Of a stretch of DNA of 15,436 bases, positions 3,806 to 11,444 are shown piece after piece. Source of the stretch: an uncultured Thermoanaerobacteraceae bacterium (lineage in GTDB: Bacteria; Bacillota; DSM-12270; Thermacetogeniales; Thermacetogeniaceae). The notes beneath the pieces are model-generated. The model was not told the origin of the DNA and searched no databases. It saw only the letters and a program-made list of their open reading frames with translations. The stretch covers positions 1 through 15,436 of the forward strand of contig CALGIY010000141.1 of NCBI GenBank assembly GCA_937914965.1, read 5' to 3'. The position numbers were made by a program, and so were the translations under genes. Positions within the stretch are counted from its first letter, which is position 1; each line of letters starts with the position of its first letter.

Positions 3806-3864
3806 ACGAAAGCGTAGGTAAGTATAATATTGGGAAAACTTATATTGATATGGTTTCTTTGTTC

Positions 3865-3894
3865 CAGTATGACAGATCATACTGTATTTTTTTT
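3865..3894 (+). promoter_or_regulatory. Terminator-like hairpin in the trkH leader
   Basis: CAGTATGA (3865-3872) and TCATACTG (3877-3884) form a perfect 8-bp stem with a CAGA tetraloop, followed by TA and eight T (3887-3894), which run directly into the GGAGGT ribosome site (3895-3900). It has the form of an intrinsic terminator but lies between a strong promoter and the gene, so it would act as an attenuator or partial terminator. No aptamer or leader peptide is recognised upstream. Confidence 0.6.
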
Positions 3895-3906
3895 GGAGGT
3901 CTTCTG

Positions 3907-5298
3907 ATGTACCGCACTTTTCTTGGTAAGACTAGGAAACAGGGGATGGTCAATTTTCTGGGGAGATTTTTCTCCCGTTTCACACCTGCGCGTATACTCG
4001 TCTTTGGTTTTGCAACACTAATCATAGTGGGGACACTCCTTTTAATGCTTCCAGCGGCAGTGCGGAGCGGACACTCCGCACCCTTTCTCACGGCCTTCTT
4101 TACCGCTACTAGCGCTGTTTGTGTTACTGGGCTGGTGGTGGTGGATACAGGAACCTATTTCTCTCTCCTCGGCCAGTTAGTTATCATCGCTTTGATTCAG
4201 GCTGGAGGGCTGGGAATTATGACCATGACCACTTTTTTTGCCATGATCATCGGCAAGAGAATCAACCTGCGGGAGAGGCTGGTCATCCAGGAAGGTTTGA
4301 ATGCTATACAGCTGGAGGGTGTAGTTAGCCTAGTCAAGAGCGTTATCGGAATGACCTTGCTGATCGAGGGGATCGGGGGGGTGCTGCTCTCCATTCGTTT
4401 TATCCCGCAGTTGGGTTGGGTAAAGGGAATCTACTACGGTTTCTTTCACAGCATATCCTCATTTTGCAATGCGGGTTTTGACCTTTTTGGTATCATCTAC
4501 GGTCCTTTTTCCAGTTTGACAGCTTACCGGGAGGATCCGATTGTTTCGCTTACAGTCCCCTGTTTGATTATTCTTGGTGGCCTGGGGTTTCTGGTGATTC
4601 GGGATATATACTATAAGAGGCGTTTTTCTAAGCTTCTGCTTCACTCCAAGGTGGCTTTGGCGATAACAGCGGTGCTGCTTATAGGGGGGACTGGCCTGTT
4701 CTGGCTGCTGGAGCGGGGAAACACTTTACAGTCACTTAGCCCGTTGGGTACATTTTTTGCATCCTTCTACCAGGCAGTTACCCCACGTACCTGTGGGAGC
4801 AACACTTTGAATATTAGTGCTCTGCGTGGAGCAACCCAGTTTTTCTTCGTTATTTTAATGTTTATTGGAGCTTCTCCTGGAAGTACAGGTGGTGGAATCA
4901 AAACTACAACATTTGCGGCGCTTTTGGCTGCTGTCTGGACAGTAGTACAGGGCAAGCCGAGTGCCGAGACATTTAAGAGATCTATACCTCACAGTATTGT
5001 TTATAAGGCGCTGGCTGTTACCATGCTGGCCGTTTTTTTAGTGGCAGGTGTTACCATGTCCTTGGCTATAACCGAAGAAACTACCTTTTTGGCTGCTCTA
5101 TTTGAAGCCACTTCCGCCTTTGGTACGGTGGGACTTACTATGGGGCTAACACCACATCTGAGCAAGATTGGGCAGGTGTTGATCGCCTTGACTATGTACA
5201 TCGGGCGGGTGGGACCCCTGACCGTAGCTCTGGCTTTCTGGCGGCGCCAGCAGTCGGCTCGGTTCAAGTATCCTGAAGAAAAGATCATCATTGGATGA
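3907..5298 (+). CDS. ktrB: Potassium uptake channel subunit, TrkH/KtrB family
   Basis: A 463-residue membrane protein of the superfamily of K+ transporters, the ion-conducting subunit that imports K+ together with a cytoplasmic RCK partner. All four pore repeats show the selectivity-filter glycine: C-V-T-G-L-V (72-77), C-N-A-G-F-D (187-192), T-P-R-T-C-G-S-N (292-299) and G-T-V-G-L-T (406-411). The G-A-S-P-G-S-T-G-G-G segment (321-330) is the loop of the third repeat that gates Ktr channels. The start is the ATG at 3907, six bases after GGAGGT (3895-3900); the earlier in-frame ATG at 3850 has no ribosome site and lies ahead of the leader hairpin. The name trkH would serve equally well; the length fits KtrB/NtpJ. 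trkA/ktrA follows after 13 bp. Confidence 0.93.
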   Translation: MYRTFLGKTRKQGMVNFLGRFFSRFTPARILVFGFATLIIVGTLLLMLPAAVRSGHSAPFLTAFFTATSAVCVTGLVVVDTGTYFSLLGQLVIIALIQAGGLGIMTMTTFFAMIIGKRINLRERLVIQEGLNAIQLEGVVSLVKSVIGMTLLIEGIGGVLLSIRFIPQLGWVKGIYYGFFHSISSFCNAGFDLFGIIYGPFSSLTAYREDPIVSLTVPCLIILGGLGFLVIRDIYYKRRFSKLLLHSKVALAITAVLLIGGTGLFWLLERGNTLQSLSPLGTFFASFYQAVTPRTCGSNTLNISALRGATQFFFVILMFIGASPGSTGGGIKTTTFAALLAAVWTVVQGKPSAETFKRSIPHSIVYKALAVTMLAVFLVAGVTMSLAITEETTFLAALFEATSAFGTVGLTMGLTPHLSKIGQVLIALTMYIGRVGPLTVALAFWRRQQSARFKYPEEKIIIG

Positions 5299-5311
5299 GG
5301 AGATGATATTG

Positions 5312-5977
5312 ATGGCGAAAAAACAGTTTGCGGTCATCGGTATTGGGAGGTTTGGGGGAGGTGTTGCCCGAACATTATACAGGATGGGACATGAGGTGCT
5401 GGCCATTGACAGCAATAAGGATGAGATTGAAAAGATCATGCATGATGTCACTTATGCTGTCCAGGTGGATGCACTCGACTTTGAGGCCATAAAATCGCTG
5501 GGAATCAGAAATTTTGATGTAGTGGTTGTAGGTGTAGGCAGTCACCTTCAGACCAGTATCCTGGTAACAGTGCAGTTGAAAGAGTTGGGAGTAAAATATG
5601 TTGTTGCCAAGGCCTTGAACGATCTTCATGGCAAGGTGCTGGAAAAGGTGGGTGCGGACAGGGTTGTTTATCCGGAGCGTGATATGGGCACCCGGCTGGC
5701 GCATCATCTGGTTTCAACCAATGTGATCGATTACATCGAACTATCTTCGGAATACGGTATCATTGAAATGCAGGTACCTGAAGTGATTATTGGAGTTACA
5801 ATGGGCAAGGCTGACTTGCGTGCCAGATTCGGGGTTACAGTGCTGGCAATCCGCAGGGGTTCAGAGGTTATTGTTTCCCCTGGTGCTGATCATGTTTTTG
5901 AGGAGCATGATATTATGGTAGTGCTGGGAGGAACCGAGGATATTGGAAGGCTGGAAGCGAAGAGTAGAATCAAGTAG
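5312..5977 (+). CDS. ktrA: Potassium uptake regulatory subunit, TrkA/KtrA family (RCK)
   Basis: A 221-residue cytoplasmic protein that forms a ring under the membrane channel and gates it in response to nucleotides. The N-terminal RCK_N Rossmann domain has G-I-G-R-F-G (10-15) and an acidic Asp33 at the end of the second strand, for ATP/ADP or NAD(H). The C-terminal TrkA_C domain (about 135-217) ends in D-I-M-V-V-L-G-G; in several Firmicutes this domain binds cyclic di-AMP, which closes the channel. The single RCK unit, as opposed to the doubled TrkA of proteobacteria, supports the KtrA type. The start chosen is the ATG at 5312, nine bases after GAGGAG; an ATG at 5303 abuts that site and is less likely. 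Same operon as ktrB. Confidence 0.92.
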   Translation: MAKKQFAVIGIGRFGGGVARTLYRMGHEVLAIDSNKDEIEKIMHDVTYAVQVDALDFEAIKSLGIRNFDVVVVGVGSHLQTSILVTVQLKELGVKYVVAKALNDLHGKVLEKVGADRVVYPERDMGTRLAHHLVSTNVIDYIELSSEYGIIEMQVPEVIIGVTMGKADLRARFGVTVLAIRRGSEVIVSPGADHVFEEHDIMVVLGGTEDIGRLEAKSRIK

Positions 5978-6025: not shown

Positions 6026-7291
6026 ATGGTGCGAGAATGTTTGCGGCTAACCGATGAAGACTTGAGCAGTATCGGGCAGCAGCGTGTTGAATGGGCATGG
6101 AGAAAAATGCCTGTTTTGCAGCGGATCAATGAAAAATGGGAGAAGACCCTCCCTCTCAAGGGGATTAAAATTGCTGCCTGTTTGCACATTTCTGCTAAAA
6201 CAGCGAACCTCGCCCGGGTGCTTAAAGCAGGTGGCGCGGACCTGGTTCTTTGTGCCTCAAATCCACTGAGCACCCAGGATGACATTGCGGCGGCCCTCAA
6301 TGTGGTCTACGGGGTCCCGACCTTTGCCCGCCGAGGTGTGGACAATGATTCTTATTACATGCAGATCAATGCCGCTCTGGATACAGAGCCGCATCTGACC
6401 ATTGACGATGGAGCAGACCTGATCACAACCCTCCATAAAGAGCGTCCAGAGCAAGCGAAACTTGTGATTGGAGGCACAGAGGAGACAACCACTGGTGTCG
6501 TAAGATTGAGGGCAATGGCTAGGGACGGTGCCTTAAAATATCCCCTGGTGGCAGTAAATGATGCTTTGACAAAACACCTTTTCGACAACAGGTACGGGAC
6601 TGGGCAGTCCGCCCTGGATGGTATCTTACGGGCAACCAATTATCTCATTGCAGGTTCCACCTTTGTGGTTGTCGGATATGGATGGTGTGGCAGGGGCCTC
6701 GCTGCTCGAGCCCGGGGGCTCGGGGCAAGAGTAGTGGTTGTAGAGGTAGATCCCTTCAAGGCATTAGAAGCCCTCATGGACGGACATGAGGTTACAAATA
6801 TGACGGAAGCGGCGAAAAGAGCCGATTTTATCGTTACGGTCACCGGGGACATTCATGTGCTGGGAGAGCAGCATATACCGTTCTTGAAGGATGGAGTAAT
6901 TGTTGCCAATGCTGGACATTTTAATGTAGAGATCGATATCCCCTTCCTGGCATCACTAGCCCACAAACGCCAGACTGTAAAAGGAGATGTAGAGGAATTC
7001 ACCCTAGAGGACGGCCGACGGATTTACCTCTTAGCTGACGGTAGGTTGGTAAACCTGGCCTGTGGGGAGGGACATCCTGTTGAGGTGATGGACTTAAGCT
7101 TTGCGAACCAGGCTTTGTCAGCTGCTTGGTTGGTCTCTCAACGGGGAAAATTGGAAGCGGGTGTCTACCAGGTACCTCGTGAGATCGATGAACGGGTTGC
7201 GAGGCTTAAATTGGCGGCATATGAAGTTGAGATCGAGGAGTTGACAGAGGAACAGAGGGCGTACCTGGCCTCCTGGGAGATTGGTACTTGA
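6026..7291 (+). CDS. ahcY: S-adenosylhomocysteinase
   Basis: A 421-residue enzyme that hydrolyses S-adenosylhomocysteine to adenosine and homocysteine with tightly bound NAD, clearing the product inhibitor of methyltransferases. Substrate-domain signatures include H-I-S-A-K-T-A (54-60), D-N-D-S-Y-Y (106-111), G-G-T-E-E-T-T-T-G (149-157) and D-N-R-Y-G-T-G-Q-S (187-195). The NAD domain has G-Y-G-W-C-G (217-222), Glu240 and G-H-F-N-V-E-I-D (297-304). The protein ends at W-E-I-G-T without the C-terminal Lys/Tyr tail that most bacterial and eukaryotic enzymes reach into the neighbouring subunit's NAD site; this short form is known from archaea and Thermotoga. The start at 6026 is six bases after GGGGAG; an ATG at 5996 lacks a site. 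It follows ktrA by 48 bp and is probably co-transcribed. Confidence 0.95.
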   Translation: MVRECLRLTDEDLSSIGQQRVEWAWRKMPVLQRINEKWEKTLPLKGIKIAACLHISAKTANLARVLKAGGADLVLCASNPLSTQDDIAAALNVVYGVPTFARRGVDNDSYYMQINAALDTEPHLTIDDGADLITTLHKERPEQAKLVIGGTEETTTGVVRLRAMARDGALKYPLVAVNDALTKHLFDNRYGTGQSALDGILRATNYLIAGSTFVVVGYGWCGRGLAARARGLGARVVVVEVDPFKALEALMDGHEVTNMTEAAKRADFIVTVTGDIHVLGEQHIPFLKDGVIVANAGHFNVEIDIPFLASLAHKRQTVKGDVEEFTLEDGRRIYLLADGRLVNLACGEGHPVEVMDLSFANQALSAAWLVSQRGKLEAGVYQVPREIDERVARLKLAAYEVEIEELTEEQRAYLASWEIGT

Positions 7292-7317
7292 TCAGACCGA
7301 GTGCCTGAAAATATTCT

Positions 7318-7356
7318 GGCCAGTCGGCTTCCTGGCTGGCCTAGTGATATTATTTG
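7318..7356 (+). terminator. Weak terminator or processing hairpin after ahcY
   Basis: GGCCAGTCGG (7318-7327) pairs with CTGGCTGGCC (7332-7341), two G-T wobbles, tetraloop CTTC. Only a broken T-rich stretch follows, so termination would be inefficient. Confidence 0.4.
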
Positions 7357-7364
7357 CCAATTTG

Positions 7365-7373
7365 TGATATAAT
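7365..7373 (+). promoter_or_regulatory. Extended -10 promoter for hpt-guaA
   Basis: TGATATAAT matches the extended -10 consensus TGnTATAAT perfectly. No good -35 is seen at the right distance, which extended -10 promoters tolerate. It would give a leader of about 85 bases before hpt. Confidence 0.6.
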
Positions 7374-7465
7374 AAGACATGCTTTTTTCTGATTATGCCG
7401 TTCTTAAAGGAACTTTTGGAACAGCAGAAGGTGCCATTTCATAACAGATTGGGTGGGGAGTACAG

Positions 7466-7993
7466 TTGGAGAAACTAGAGGTGCTGTTTCCGGAAGATAG
7501 ATTACAGTCAAAGGTCGAGGAGATGGCAGAGCAAATCAATCGAGATTACGCAGGGAAAGAAATCCTGGTTGTTGGCATCCTGCGGGGTGCTTTTGTCTTT
7601 CTTGCGGATCTGGTGCGCAAGCTTAAAGGACCGCTGATTATAGATTTTGTGGCGGTCTCCAGCTACGGGGACGACACTGCCAGTTCTGGAGTTGTCAGGT
7701 TTTTAAAAGATCTAGATGAGAGCGTAGCGGGGAGGCATGTGCTCCTGGTGGAGGATATTATTGACTCTGGCCTGACCCTGAAATACCTTTATAAAAACCT
7801 GAAGGCCCGCGGTCCAGCGAGCCTCAAGGTCTGCACACTGCTGGACAAGCCAAGCAGGCGTAAGGTTGATTTTATTCCTGATTACAATGGATTTACTATA
7901 CCTGATTATTTTGTGGTAGGATATGGCCTTGACCGCGGCCAGCGTTACCGGAATCTTCCTAGTATCTATTATTTTTGCACGGAAAACCATTAG
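7466..7993 (+). CDS. hpt: Hypoxanthine phosphoribosyltransferase
   Basis: A 175-residue purine salvage enzyme that joins hypoxanthine (and usually guanine) to PRPP, giving IMP or GMP. The PRPP-binding motif L-L-V-E-D-I-I-D-S-G-L-T-L is at 93-105, the flexible-loop segment S-S-Y-G-D-D-T-A-S-S-G at 65-75, and the base-binding end V-V-G-Y-G-L-D at the C-terminal part, as in bacterial Hpt. The start is TTG, five bases after GGTGGGGAG (7452-7460); no ATG fits. It stands 24 bp before guaA, so salvage to IMP/GMP and the IMP-derived GMP branch share one transcript. With a damaged de novo pathway this salvage gene could carry much of the purine supply. Confidence 0.93.
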   Translation: MEKLEVLFPEDRLQSKVEEMAEQINRDYAGKEILVVGILRGAFVFLADLVRKLKGPLIIDFVAVSSYGDDTASSGVVRFLKDLDESVAGRHVLLVEDIIDSGLTLKYLYKNLKARGPASLKVCTLLDKPSRRKVDFIPDYNGFTIPDYFVVGYGLDRGQRYRNLPSIYYFCTENH

Positions 7994-8017
7994 AATTTGC
8001 AGAAAGGGGGGTCAGGC

Positions 8018-9418
8018 ATGGGTGAACGGGACCTGATCCTGGTTGTGGATTTCGGAGGAGATTATACTCAACTGGTTGCCCGCCGCATCCGTGAGGCGCA
8101 TGTTTATTGTGAGGTTGTGCCTTATACTGTGACCGGGGAGGAGATACAGAAGAAGAAGCCGCAGGGTTTGGTGCTTTTAGGTGGTCCGGCAAGTGTTGAT
8201 GATAAAGCACCGGTGTGTGATCCTGATTTGCTGCAGGAATACCCGGTACTTGGAATTGGCGAAGGGATGCAGCTGCTGGTTCGTCTGTTAGGAGAAAAGG
8301 TGACCAGGGCAGAGCAGCAGGAAACAGCTGCACCTGGGATACCAGCGGCCATCTTTAATGGTGAGCGCCTTATCTATGGAGCCCAGTTTTACTTGGAACT
8401 GCGTGATACTCCTCGCGGGCAAGAGATGATCGAAAACTTCCTTTATGATATCTGTGGATGCCGGGGTGATTGGACACCCGCTGCCTTTATTGAAGAACAA
8501 ATAGCGAGTATCAGAAAAACAGTAGGCAGCAGCAGGGTAGTGGGGGCTTTGAGTGGCGGTGTTGATTCCACAGTAGCAGCCACACTGGTTCACCGGGCTA
8601 TTGGCGACCAACTGACCTGCATCTTTGTCGACCACGGCTTGCTCCGGAAGGGTGAGCGGGAACAGGTGACAAAGATTTTCCAGGAGAAGCTTGGGGTAAA
8701 CACGATCACAGTTGATGCCCGGGAGCGCTTCCTGACTAAACTTTCTGGTGTCACAGACCCAGAGAAGAAGCGGAAAATTATTGGTCATGAGTTCATCCGT
8801 GTCTTTGAAGAGGAAGCCTCTGGTCTCGGTGATTTTGAGTTTCTCCTCCAGGGCACCATTTATCCCGATGTAATCGAATCAGGAACTTCTGCTACTGGTG
8901 TAGTTAAAAGTCACCATAATGTAGGTGGACTTCCTGATGACATGAGGCTGCGCCTTTTGGAGCCGCTGCGGTTGCTGTTCAAGGATGAGGTGCGCCTTAT
9001 CGGGCAGGAACTGGGTCTGTCTGAGGATCTTGTCTGGCGCCAGCCTTTCCCGGGACCGGGCCTGGCAGTTCGTGTTTTGGGTGAAGTAACCGAAGAGAAG
9101 TTGGACCTGGTCCGGGATGCGGACTATATCCTGAGAGAGGAAATCCGGCGAGCTGGTCTGGATCGGGAGATCTGGCAGTACTTTGCTGCTCTGCTGCCGG
9201 TTAGGAGTGTTGGTGTAGTCGATGGTGAGCGCACCTACGCTCACCCAATTGTGCTGCGGGCGGTTACAAGTGAAGATGCCATGACCGCTGGTTGGGCGCG
9301 GCTGCCCTATGATTTGCTGGAGCGGATAGCCAACCGGATTCTGGGTGATGTTCCAGGTATCAACCGGGTGACCTATGATATCACTCCCAAACCACCTGGC
9401 ACCATTGAATGGGAATAA
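8018..9418 (+). CDS. guaA: GMP synthase with a degenerate glutaminase domain
   Basis: A 466-residue GMP synthase, about 45-50 shorter than usual, which aminates XMP to GMP with ATP. The synthetase half is intact: P-loop S-G-G-V-D-S (179-184), [20 protein letters not shown], and the dimerisation end with [13 protein letters not shown] and K-P-P-G-T-I-E-W-E. The N-terminal glutaminase half is not. D-F-G-G-D-Y-T-Q-L and L-G-G-P-A-S-V are present, but the nucleophile motif G-I-C-Y-G is G-I-G-E-G (Gly81, codon GGC at 8258-8260), the H-P-E motif is Y-L-E (Tyr125), and only 43 residues separate the two where E. coli has 94, so the strand-helix region with the S-H-G-D loop is deleted. I infer an ammonia-dependent enzyme. 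The start at 8018 is six bases after a G-rich site; same operon as hpt. Confidence 0.95.
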
Positions 9419-9428
9419 TTTGGTGAGG

Positions 9429-9453
9429 TGACAAAGGGACGGTCCTTTTGTCA
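9429..9453. repeat. REP-like palindromic element, copy 1
   Basis: TGACAAAGGGAC (9429-9440) and GTCCTTTTGTCA (9442-9453) form an almost perfect 12-bp inverted repeat with one wobble. The core GGGACGGTCCTTTTG recurs at 15024-15038 after purF, with similar TGACAA/TTGTCA ends. Dispersed short palindromes with this GGGACGGTxCTTTTG core are, from memory, found in many anaerobe genomes and may be REP sequences moved by Y1/RAYT transposases. Confidence 0.55.
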
Positions 9454-9466
9454 TTTCAATGACAAT
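9449..9466. repeat. Inverted repeat overlapping the REP-like element
   Basis: TTGTCATT (9449-9456) and AATGACAA (9459-9466) form a perfect 8-bp palindrome around TC. It shares its left arm with the right arm of the preceding hairpin, so only one of the two can form at a time in RNA. Confidence 0.6.
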
Positions 9467-9471
9467 ACTTG

Positions 9472-9500
9472 ATACCTGAATCCTGTCTCAGGTATTTATT
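9472..9500 (+). terminator. Weak terminator-like hairpin before purE
   Basis: ATACCTGA (9472-9479) pairs with TCAGGTAT (9488-9495) around an 8-base loop, followed by TTATTT. The tail is short and interrupted, so it may reduce rather than end transcription between guaA and purE. Confidence 0.4.
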
Positions 9501-9521
9501 TACAGGTAGAGGTGAAAGGAT

Positions 9522-10016
9522 ATGGAAGTACCATTGGTTGGTATAGTTCTGGGAAGCGATTCTGATCTTCCGAAAGTGGAGGAGACAGCGAGCGTTCTGC
9601 GGGATTTTGGGGTACCCTATGAAATGACCATTGCCTCGGCTCATCGCAACCCCGACCTGGCTGCTACCTATGCTCGGGATGCGGAAAAGCGAGGCATCGC
9701 GGTGATCATTGCTGGGGCGGGAATGGCAGCACACCTTCCTGGTGTGCTGGCGGCGTACACCTGCCTCCCGGTTATCGGGGTTCCTCTGCAGGGGGGTGCC
9801 TTGAACGGGATCGATGCCCTCTACTCAATAGTCCAGATGCCACCGGGAGTACCGGTAGCCACGGTGGCTGTCAATGGGGCGCGCAATGCCGCTCTCTTGG
9901 CAATCCAGATGCTTGGTACCAAGGATTCTGGATTGAGAGAGAAGTTCCGGGCATATAAAAAGGAATTGGCCGAGAAGGTGGGCAGGATAAATAACAGCGT
10001 ATACAGAAATATTTAA
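9522..10016 (+). CDS. purE: N5-carboxyaminoimidazole ribonucleotide mutase (PurE class I)
   Basis: A 164-residue enzyme of de novo purine synthesis that forms CAIR. Active-site signatures are G-S-D-S-D-L-P (11-17), S-A-H-R-N-P (39-44) and [12 protein letters not shown] (64-75), the class I pattern. Class I PurE rearranges N5-CAIR made by PurK; no purK is next to it, as in many Clostridia. Either purK lies elsewhere or N5-CAIR forms spontaneously from AIR and bicarbonate, which is known to bypass purK loss at high CO2. The start is the ATG at 9522 after AGGTGAAAGGA. It follows guaA by 103 bp holding three hairpins, and is separated from the rest of the pur genes by a terminator and a purC remnant. 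Confidence 0.95.
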
Positions 10017-10155
10017 AAATATCTAAGTGGTAATGGGATGTAGTGAAACAAATATATGGTTTTAGCGTAGGCGAGTAGGGTGCGACCTGTTCTGCTTCAG
10101 TGAAGAATTGCGATATCTATTCTATTGCGAGTTTTTACAAAATCGAAACTTCTCG

Positions 10156-10194
10156 ATCCCGGGGTCAGGGTAAATTAACCGGGATGATTTTTTT
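10156..10194 (+). terminator. Intrinsic terminator between purE and the purC remnant
   Basis: ATCCCGG (10156-10162) pairs with CCGGGAT (10179-10185) around a 16-base loop, followed two bases later by seven T (10188-10194). It either ends the purE transcript or is the terminator half of an attenuator for purSQLF. I see no known purine, ZTP or T-box aptamer in the 140 bp before it. Confidence 0.7.
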
Positions 10195-10473
10195 ATGGTT
10201 ACAGGACGCTGGAATATCACAAGCATCTTCTCGAGCAGTTCTGCTCGGAGACTAGGGCTTGTAAATGATATTCTGCGTTATTACTTATTCATCAAAAACC
10301 TGGTGCTGGTGGACCTTGAATTGGAATTCAGTTGGCAGAAAGGTGAGATACTACTAGCTGATGAGATAGATTTCCTGATACCTGATGTTTTTGGGATCAG
10401 TTTCCGGCGTGATCTAGGTGGGTTGATACCCACTGATGAGTATTTTGGAAGAAACCGTAAGGAGGGAAACCCA
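10195..10473 (+). pseudogene. purC: Decayed SAICAR synthetase (purC) remnant
   Basis: The frame is open from an ATG at 10195 and runs in phase into purS, but the residues are those of the C-terminal part of PurC. V-N-D-I-L-R (from 10261), L-V-L-V-D-L-E-L-E-F, K-G-E-I-L-L-A-D-E-I and F-R-R-D-L-G-G (10402-10422) align in order with the family's V-N-E-x-L, L-V-D-F-K-L-E-F, G-E-I-x-L-A-D-E-I and F-R-R-x-L-G. The ATP/substrate segment S-P-D-T-C-R-L-W-D that should follow A-D-E-I is scrambled and shortened. Only about 90 of some 235 residues remain; a preceding A-R-R-L-G-L could be the middle of PurC (S-x-x-K-R-L-G) joined by an internal deletion. No ribosome site precedes 10195. It sits exactly where purC is expected. 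An intact copy elsewhere would be needed for de novo synthesis. Confidence 0.75.
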
Positions 10474-10728
10474 TTGTTTGAAGCACGAATCTACATAACT
10501 CTGAAAAAAGGAATACTTGATCCAGAGGGAAAAACAGTCAAACAAGGCCTAAAGTCTTTGGGGTACGACCAGGTAGAAGATGTGAAGACAGGCAAGTACC
10601 TGATCCTCACTCTCAAAACTGCTGATCGAATCGCAGCGGAACAAGAGGTGCGTGAGATGTGTGAGAAACTCCTGGTCAACCTGGTAATCGAGCGTTACAC
10701 ATTTGAACTCCGGGAGGTTGAAGAATGA
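10474..10728 (+). CDS. purS: Phosphoribosylformylglycinamidine synthase subunit PurS
   Basis: An 84-residue protein, the normal PurS size. PurS is the small dimer that bridges PurL and PurQ in the multi-subunit FGAM synthase of Gram-positives and archaea, and helps ammonia pass from PurQ to PurL. Family features are [18 protein letters not shown], the [16 protein letters not shown] segment, and [13 protein letters not shown]. The start is TTG at 10474, seven bases after AAGGAGGG; the frame is open 279 bases farther upstream, but that stretch is purC remnant. Its TGA overlaps the purQ ATG by four bases (ATGA). Confidence 0.93.
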
Positions 10729-11444
10729 GATTTGGAGTAGCGGTTTTTCCCGGGTCCAATGCTGCTGACTGCTACCATATTATCGATCAGGTGCTCGGCC
10801 ACTCTGTTGCCTACATTTGGCACCAGGAGAGGGACCTGACCGGGTTTGATTGTGTGATCCTTCCCGGTGGGTTTTCTTATGGGGATTACCTGAGGGCTGG
10901 GTCAGTGGCTAGTTTGGCCCCGGTAATGGAAGAAACAGTGAAGTTTGCGGAACAGGGGGGGCTTGTTTTGGGTATCGGCAACGGTTTCCAGGTTCTCCTG
11001 GAGGCAGACCTTCTTCCAGGAGCTATGCGCCGCAACGAGATACCCCAGTTTCGCTGTCATGATGTTTTCTTAAAGGTCGAGAGCAACACGCTTCCTTTTA
11101 CCAACAGATACCGGAGGGGAGAGGTGATCAGAGTCCCCAGTGCCCATGGTGAGGGGAACTATTACATTGATCACCAGGAACTGGCCAAGATGGAGCAGCA
11201 GGGACAGGTGGTCTTCCGTTACTGTACGGAAGCAGGGGAGATCACACCTGAGGCCAACCCCAATGGTTCTATTGAAAATATCGCTGGGGTCTGCAGTAAA
11301 AAGGGGAATGTTCTAGGCTTGATGCCTCACCCGGAACGCTGTGCCGAAGAGATTCTGGGCAATACAGCAGGGCGGCGCGTTTTCCTTTCTATTTTGAACT
11401 GGTTGGGAATCAACCAGCAGAAGAAGGTGATTGTGCATGGCTGA
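10725..11444 (+). CDS. purQ: FGAM synthase glutaminase subunit PurQ with Cys-to-Gly nucleophile loss
   Basis: A 239-residue class I glutamine amidotransferase subunit, which normally makes ammonia from glutamine for PurL. The fold looks complete: F-P-G-S-N (8-12), [14 protein letters not shown] (46-59), A-H-G-E-G-N-Y-Y (140-147) and M-P-H-P-E-R (200-205) with the triad His202 and Glu204. The nucleophile motif, however, reads G-I-G-N-G-F-Q: residue 85 is Gly (codon GGC, 10977-10979) where the family has Cys. Without it glutamine cannot be hydrolysed by the standard mechanism, so the subunit may be structural and FGAM synthase may draw on free ammonia. The Cys of the usual S-N-C-D near the start is also absent (S-N-A-A-D). 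It overlaps purS by 4 bp and purL by 8 bp. Confidence 0.95.

What the first reader, a model, noticed from the sequence alone, without database searches (positions are those of the whole stretch)
10971..10991. PurQ catalytic Cys replaced by Gly in an otherwise intact subunit
Seen: G-I-G-N-G-F-Q at residues 83-89 in place of the near-invariant G-[IV]-C-N-G-F-Q; codon GGC is one base from TGC. His202 and Glu204 and all scaffold motifs remain, and the gene keeps tight overlaps with purS and purL. Known: this Cys forms the thioester intermediate with glutamine. Inferred: PurQ is retained as a structural part of the PurLSQ complex while ammonia comes from solution.
Basis: partly seen in the sequence, partly recalled or inferred. 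Interest (0 to 1): 0.9.

Follow-up and report, generated by a model that had tools for sequence, protein, structure and literature searches.

The report
Purine enzyme that lost its glutaminase
A purine-making enzyme in this bacterium has lost the part that takes nitrogen from glutamine, and several other glutamine-using enzymes in its genome and its relatives have lost theirs too, which suggests that these microbes, kin of bacteria from ammonia-rich digesters, build molecules straight from ammonia.

Summary
PurQ (10725-11444) has Gly (GGC, 10977-10979) where glutaminases carry the nucleophilic Cys, and no second purQ was found. It is no error: 8 of 20 family genomes carry Gly, 11 Cys, one gave no PurQ. 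PurQ stays under purifying selection (dN/dS about 0.13).
In the same genome the GuaA glutaminase domain (in this window), CarA and GlmS have also lost the catalytic Cys. In the family GuaA is glutaminase-dead in 8 of 8 Gly-PurQ genomes and intact in 10 of 10 readable Cys-PurQ genomes; hisH is missing from the six Gly-clade his operons read. Gly-PurQ recurs in six other families, Tepidanaerobacter's included. Papers report no glutamine synthetase in Syntrophaceticus schinkii and T. acetatoxydans, but one in Thermacetogenium phaeum, whose enzymes read here keep Cys.
Best reading: a lineage-wide change from glutamine-fed to ammonia-fed amidation, PurQ staying as scaffold of PurLQS. PyrG, TrpG, GatD and PurF keep Cys here, so the change is selective. 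Activity is unmeasured; glutamine synthetase was not searched in this genome.

The parts
10725..11444 (+). purQ, 239 aa, glutaminase-dead PurQ
   Evidence: ORF; TIGR01737 and NF002957 above cut-off; AlphaFold2 model, mean pLDDT 71.5, best PDB match 3d54_D
10971..10991 (+). GIGNGFQ, nucleophile-elbow motif
10977..10979 (+). codon 85 GGC (Gly) where Cys is expected
   Evidence: aligned with Cys of 3d54_D
11328..11336 (+). His202-Pro-Glu204, rest of the triad, kept
8018..9418 (+). guaA, 466 aa from ATG 8018: synthetase part intact; GATase part shortened, Cys replaced by Gly (GIGEGMQ), FHPE replaced by FYLE
   Evidence: held from 5 contigs
8258..8260 (+). guaA codon 81 GGC, Gly in place of the GATase Cys
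8387..8398 (+). FYLE of guaA in place of FHPE
10474..10728 (+). purS
   Evidence: PF02700, TIGR00302
11437..13632 (+). purL (FGAM synthetase subunit), full length
   Evidence: TIGR01736 944.7 bits
13602..15005 (+). purF, keeps the N-terminal-type Cys (KPKEACGVFGI)
   Evidence: TIGR01134
9522..10016 (+). purE
   Evidence: TIGR01162
7466..7993 (+). hpt, directly upstream of guaA
   Evidence: TIGR01203

Best explanation
PurQ of this Thermacetogeniaceae bacterium cannot hydrolyse glutamine because its nucleophilic Cys is Gly. It is kept as a structural or allosteric subunit of PurL-PurQ-PurS, and PurL aminates FGAR with free ammonia. This is one part of a stepwise, lineage-wide change: GuaA (Gly, then the domain is deleted), CarA (Ser or Ala, His and Glu lost, or not found), HisH (gene lost in the relatives whose his operon could be read) and GlmS (Cys1 to Ser) lose glutaminase while the partner synthases persist, save that CarB too was not found in four relatives. 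The likely driver is life at high ammonium together with loss of glutamine synthetase, reported for named relatives, which makes glutamine scarce and ammonia abundant. Shown: the sequence changes, their spread and the selection on PurQ. Inferred: absence of glutaminase activity, use of free ammonia, the scaffold role, and absence of glutamine synthetase in this genome.
For: Gly in 8 and Cys in 11 of 20 family genomes. GuaA glutaminase-dead in 8 of 8 Gly genomes and intact in 10 of 10 readable Cys genomes (Fisher p 2.3e-5, not corrected for kinship); hpt abuts the guaA synthetase in G005, G006, G007, G008 and G015 with no room for a GATase domain. CarA: Ser in G000, Ala in G005, G007, G008, with His and Glu lost; triad kept in 3 of 3 Cys relatives read (G003, G016, G019). 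hisH absent in 6 of 6 Gly-clade his operons read; HisH over its cut-off in 1 of 14 Gly-PurQ and in 258 of the 384 other genomes of the phylum sample (p 7.7e-6, not corrected for kinship). GlmS Cys1 is Ser in G000, G015, G017, G018 and Cys in G019. dN/dS of PurQ about 0.13, Cys control pair 0.09. Gly-PurQ in six other families; at least 9 changes on a 252-row tree. Tepidanaerobacter-like G307: PurQ, GuaA, PyrG and TrpG all Gly, hisH and carA not found. Literature (passages): S. schinkii and T. acetatoxydans lack glutamine synthetase and ammonium transporters, T. phaeum has both (PMC5113046, PMC4374699, PMC5924567). Most amidotransferases can use exogenous ammonia (PMC10526850); HisF works without HisH on ammonium salts in vitro (PMC11350729), and a Klebsiella hisH mutant is rescued by high ammonium (PMC5919458).
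Against: No enzyme was assayed. In G000 PyrG, TrpG, a GatD-like protein and PurF keep their Cys, so some glutamine is probably still used. PurF keeps Cys in all 12 genomes where it was read, G307 included. G124 has Gly-PurQ with intact GuaA and CarA triads and a HisH, and G399 has an intact GuaA triad, so PurQ loss does not require the rest. P0004 (Cys, 74% identity) nests inside the window's clade, so losses are repeated or there was a reversal. HisH is also below cut-off in 126 of 384 genomes without Gly-PurQ. S. schinkii is reported abundant in low- as well as high-ammonia digesters (PMC5113046). The PurL-ammonia step itself rests on recall and on a general statement in a review.
Confidence: 0.8

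Rival explanations
1. Sequencing, assembly or binning error in one metagenome-assembled genome.
For: G000 is a 411-contig draft with 3.3% contamination; G015 purQ carries a frameshift, which fits the Ion Torrent origin of S. schinkii Sp3 (PMC4642661).
Against: Gly in 8 of 20 family genomes with different codons around it, protein held from 2 contigs, same residue in other families.
Confidence: 0.01
2. PurQ still hydrolyses glutamine by another nucleophile, or another glutaminase subunit feeds PurL in trans.
For: His202 and Glu204 are kept; C43, C111, C167, C190 and C206 are conserved in both groups; TrpG and PyrG keep their Cys in G000.
Against: No Cys is shared by the Gly group alone, and the Gly group also differs at residues 13, 61 and 63. 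His or Glu are lost as well in some convergent PurQs (G118 MARPER, G189 MAHFHR, G399 MPLPER). No second purQ found.
Confidence: 0.06
3. The de novo purine pathway is decaying and the cell lives on scavenged purines; PurQ Gly is an early step of pseudogene formation.
For: The hpt salvage gene lies next to guaA; the GuaA GATase part evolves faster (dN 0.24 against 0.12 for the synthetase part, G000/G018).
Against: PurQ dN/dS 0.13; purE, purS, purL and purF match their families over full length; purQ is present in each of the 8 Gly family genomes (one copy frameshifted) while the GuaA GATase domain is deleted in 6 of them and hisH in the 6 whose his operon was read.
Confidence: 0.07
4. Neutral loss in separate enzymes without any link to ammonia or to glutamine synthetase.
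For: G124 shows the PurQ change alone among the enzymes read; losses are patchy between enzymes; S. schinkii also lives in low-ammonia digesters.
Against: Co-loss of GuaA, CarA, HisH and GlmS in the same clade and recurrence in a Tepidanaerobacter-like genome; both S. schinkii and T. acetatoxydans are reported without glutamine synthetase.
Confidence: 0.12

Closest known systems
PurQ of PurLQS, Thermotoga maritima (PDB 3d54 chain D)
   Same: Fold, length and motifs; best sequence match (E 4.6e-52) and best fold match (TM 0.74/0.82)
   Different: 3d54 has Cys at the elbow and the Cys-Asp of GSNCD; the window protein has Gly and lacks the Cys-Asp
Human carbamoyl phosphate synthetase 1 (CPS1)
   Same: Catalytic Cys of the glutaminase-like domain replaced (Ser294), domain kept, ammonia used (PMC4655335, passages read)
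   Different: One enzyme in vertebrates; here four enzymes of one bacterial genome (PurQ, GuaA, CarA, GlmS), three of them outside carbamoyl phosphate
Single-domain NadE (ammonia-dependent NAD synthetase)
   Same: Synthetase that uses free ammonia in vivo; [quoted passage not shown]
   Different: That paper's Table 1 gives no share of genomes without a glutaminase part for guaA, purL or carAB; here these parts are dead or gone
Archaeal PurF' (PurF paralogues without the N-terminal Cys)
   Same: Amidotransferase without nucleophile near purine genes, ammonia use proposed (PMC3261824, passages read)
   Different: PurF' is a paralogue near a normal PurF; that survey reports Cys fully conserved in archaeal PurQ, apart from one extra fragment that lacks the whole triad

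Membership tests
PurQ (TIGR01737 / NF002957) | Curated sequence score | tested here: met
   285 and 297.8 bits, cut-offs 177.8 and 212
PurQ (TIGR01737 / NF002957) | Operon with purS and purL | tested here: met
   purE-purS-purQ-purL-purF with overlaps
PurQ (TIGR01737 / NF002957) | PurQ fold | tested here: met
   Model pLDDT 71.5 from 18 sequences; top match 3d54_D
Class I (triad) glutamine amidotransferase, as an activity | Nucleophilic Cys at the elbow | tested here: not met
   Gly85
Class I (triad) glutamine amidotransferase, as an activity | His and Glu of the triad | tested here: met
   His202, Glu204
Class I (triad) glutamine amidotransferase, as an activity | Glutamine hydrolysis | not testable with these tools
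   Needs purified complex
Ammonia-dependent amidotransferase (works like CPS1) | Dead glutaminase part kept with intact synthase | tested here: met
   PurQ under purifying selection, PurL full length
Ammonia-dependent amidotransferase (works like CPS1) | Product formed from ammonium | not testable with these tools
   Needs assay
Lineage without glutamine synthetase | No glnA in the genome | not tested

The most novel reading that the evidence does not exclude
A group of syntrophic bacteria has largely given up glutamine as nitrogen currency: glutamine synthetase is gone and purine, pyrimidine, GMP, histidine and amino-sugar synthesis run on free ammonia, with the former glutaminases surviving as dead scaffolds or lost. 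The change arose several times, in separate families, in ammonia-rich habitats.
Probability: 0.55. Interest if true: 0.92.

Novelty: new variant of a known kind. Interest (0 to 1): 0.86.

Why it matters
Textbook metabolism delivers amide nitrogen by glutamine because free ammonia is low and is channelled. A bacterium that has switched off this delivery in several pathways at once would show that the glutaminase half is dispensable where ammonia is abundant, would show in which order such enzymes decay, and would separate the catalytic from the structural role of PurQ. It could also give a genomic marker for dependence on ammonium and bear on the published remark that S. schinkii and T. [quoted passage not shown] The three genome papers whose main text was searched for it (PMC4374699, PMC5113046, PMC5924567) report the missing glutamine synthetase and hold the word amidotransferase nowhere. 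Among the titles and abstracts listed by the paper searches none reports the glutaminase losses; three of those six lists were cut (42, 63 and 75; for example 15 of 426), and the library holds only open-licence papers.

Tried and rejected
Read error, second purQ, alternative nucleophile, pseudogene and unlinked neutral loss were considered and are given as rivals. A loose HisH cut (E up to 0.001) matched 338 of 398 genomes, so the curated cut-off (259 of 398) was used. In the automatic triad table the last two letters for PyrG are wrong, because the reference holds a second FHPE; PyrG was read by eye. Of the 33 pattern hits, 16 are chance frames or other proteins and were dropped. The large-PurL cases (G060, G100, G231) were left out of the count of 14. 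The structure model (five models, mean pLDDT 48.7-71.5) is too rough to judge tunnel or interface and is used for fold only. No Rfam family above its gathering score and no tRNA gene lies in the window; the promoter and terminator scan of 7200-10800 gave chance numbers. G307 as T. acetatoxydans Re1 is inferred: one contig of 2,761,252 bases, PurQ 5 of 241 residues from a protein named T. acetatoxydans, and a genome of about 2.76 Mb implied by 98.7 kb = 3.57% in PMC4374699. G015 as S. schinkii Sp3 rests on rounded 3.2 Mb and 300 contigs against 3,196,921 bp and 301 contigs (PMC4642661). G019 as T. phaeum rests on the exact size 2,939,057 (PMC3551663). The guaA start used (8015) is one codon before the ATG at 8018; this changes no result.

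Full report
What is there. The window is G000 contig 141, a draft genome of 2.0 Mb in 411 contigs, 92% complete. It holds hpt-guaA-purE-purS-purQ-purL-purF. PurQ (239 aa) passes the PurQ equivalogs. Residue 85 is Gly (GGC); in PDB 3d54 chain D the aligned residue is Cys. The rest of the triad is present. One purQ was found in the genome.

It is a clade trait. The family search returned 20 genomes: Gly in 8 (G000, G005, G006, G007, G008, G015, G017, G018), Cys in 11 (G001-G004, G009, G010, G011, G013, G014, G016, G019), no PurQ in G012. The class-level search returned the same 20 genomes. Besides residue 85, the 7 full-length Gly sequences differ without overlap from the 11 Cys sequences at residue 13 (Ala for Cys, with one residue deleted after it), 61 and 63 (Arg in the Cys group); no Cys is shared by the Gly group alone. 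dN/dS is 0.078/0.60 for G000/G018, 0.12-0.23 for four pairs within genus g4, and 0.013/0.139 for the Cys pair G009/G010. PurQ is therefore constrained although it lacks its nucleophile. Among the 120 homologues listed, 12 have Gly and 108 Cys; among 105 further ones listed, 26 have Gly, 1 Asn and 78 Cys.

It is not only PurQ. GuaA of the window has GIGEGMQ for GICYGMQ (codon GGC, 8258-8260), FYLE for FHPE, and a shortened GATase part. G018 has a full-length GuaA with GIGGGMH and FHPE kept. In G005-G008 and G015 the open frame holds the synthetase alone (328 aa; 381 in G008, whose extra part overlaps hpt), and hpt abuts it. G017 has runs of N, but its hpt also ends next to the synthetase and no GATase motif is seen. 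The 10 Cys-PurQ genomes with a readable GuaA keep GICYGMQ and FHPE; G010 gave no GuaA, and G012 only a C-terminal piece. Of the 120 GuaA homologues listed, 7 lack the GATase Cys (P0226, P0227, P0228, P0230, P0248, P0260, P0283, some read by eye). CarA is GISLGHL in G000 and GIALGHL in G005, G007 and G008, each with the FHPE-type motif lost and followed by carB; CarA and CarB were not found in G006, G015, G017 or G018. Three Cys relatives read have the CarA triad. GlmS, a class II enzyme, has Ser for Cys1 and His for the Arg of YRGYDS in G000, G015, G017 and G018, but Cys and Arg in T. phaeum; G005 and G307 gave no GlmS match. The his operon is hisB-hisH-hisA-hisF in G001 but hisB-hisA-hisF in G005, G006, G007, G015, G017 and G018, with hisA fused to hisF in G015 and G018. 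G000 and G008 gave no hisF match of the expected kind, so HisH cannot be judged in the window's own genome. Kept in the Gly clade where read: PyrG Cys (G000, G005, G006, G008, G015, G017, G018), TrpG Cys (G000, G005, G007), a GatD-like Cys (G000) and PurF Cys (G000, G005, G015, G017, G018).

It recurs. In 398 genomes sampled from the phylum the Gly pattern matched 33. Reading the loci gives 14 stand-alone Gly-PurQs: 5 of this family and G050, G091 (f32), G118 (f55), G124 (f26), G189, G260 (f62), G214, G307 (f91), G399 (f21). Three more are PurQ-like ends of large PurL proteins (G060, G100, G231). Other replacements of Cys were not searched, so this is a lower bound. On a tree of 252 PurQs (55 without Cys) at least 9 changes are needed. 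One Cys sequence, P0004, lies inside the window's clade, so even there the loss is repeated or was reversed. HisH above its cut-off is found in 1 of these 14 (G124) and in 258 of the other 384 genomes (p 7.7e-6; not corrected for kinship, and 5 of the 14 are one family). G307, inferred to be Tepidanaerobacter acetatoxydans Re1, goes furthest: PurQ, GuaA, PyrG and TrpG all have Gly, hisH is not found, and carB stands in its operon without carA. G118 and G189 have Ser in PyrG, and G399 has Gly. Against a strict package: G124 has intact GuaA and CarA triads and a HisH, G399 an intact GuaA triad, and G050 and G091 keep the PyrG Cys while their CarA has Gly.

Why. Genome papers state that S. schinkii, T. 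acetatoxydans and Clostridium ultunense lack glutamine synthetase and that T. phaeum has it together with a predicted ammonium transporter; T. acetatoxydans copes with ammonium up to 1 M (PMC5113046, PMC4374699, PMC5924567, passages). Thus in the three named genomes compared here glutaminase state follows glutamine synthetase: in T. phaeum the PurQ, GuaA, CarA, TrpG, GlmS and PurF that were read keep their Cys; its PyrG and HisH were found but not read. Three genomes are few. PMC5113046 also says that S. schinkii is abundant in low-ammonia digesters. Free ammonia serves most amidotransferases in vitro (PMC10526850, passages), HisF without HisH in vitro (PMC11350729, passages), and a hisH mutant of Klebsiella at high ammonium (PMC5919458, passage). 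PurF with Ala or Ser for Cys1 still uses ammonia (PMC3261824, passage). The inference is that high ammonium made glutamine-driven delivery dispensable, that loss of glutamine synthetase fixed this, and that parts needed for assembly (PurQ, CarA in some) were kept while free-standing or modular parts (HisH, GuaA GATase) were dropped.

Open points. Glutamine synthetase was not searched in G000. PurF keeps its Cys in the 12 genomes read, perhaps because that Cys is also needed for propeptide processing (recalled, not tested). GlmS is a problem for a simple model: it is remembered as poor with free ammonia, so how amino sugar is made in this clade is unknown. The habitat of G000 itself is not given; it is inferred from relatives.

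Novelty. Ammonia-fed enzymes with a dead glutaminase are known (CPS1, PMC4655335), and PMC3376133 calls NadE only a second case of direct ammonia use in vivo. A bacterium in which several amidotransferases have lost glutaminase together was not seen among the titles and abstracts listed, three of whose lists were cut.

Noticed in passing
   Followed up: yes
L289 (G000 contig 216) 5538-6620: CarA with Ser for Cys and the FHPE-type motif lost, followed by carB cut by the contig end.
   Followed up: yes
L290 (G000 contig 47) 1479-3308, minus strand: GlmS begins MSGIVGYLG: Ser for the catalytic Cys1; also in G015, G017, G018. How GlmS would then work is unexplained.
   Followed up: partly
L233 (G015), L237 (G018), L240 (G260): hisA and hisF fused in one open frame in genomes whose his operon lacks hisH.
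   Followed up: partly
protein P0260: Phosphoribosyltransferase (PF00156, Hpt-like) fused to a GMP synthetase that has no glutaminase domain (616 aa).
   Followed up: no
L259 and L221 (G016): A Cys-PurQ relative with one his operon lacking hisH and a separate hisH-hisF pair on the contig that bears purQ.
   Followed up: no
L165, L166 (G060, G100) and L162 (G231): PurQ-like ends of large PurL proteins with Gly for the Cys (LGNGFQ or MGNGFQ).
   Followed up: partly
genomes G006, G015, G017, G018, G118, G189, G260: No CarB match although HisF is found: the source of carbamoyl phosphate is unknown.
   Followed up: no
window 3850-5977: TrkH-type potassium transporter and a TrkA-like protein upstream of the purine genes; potassium uptake is a proposed answer to ammonium stress in these syntrophs (PMC5113046).
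   Followed up: no
protein P0147: A PurQ with Asn at the catalytic position (GINNGFQ).
   Followed up: no
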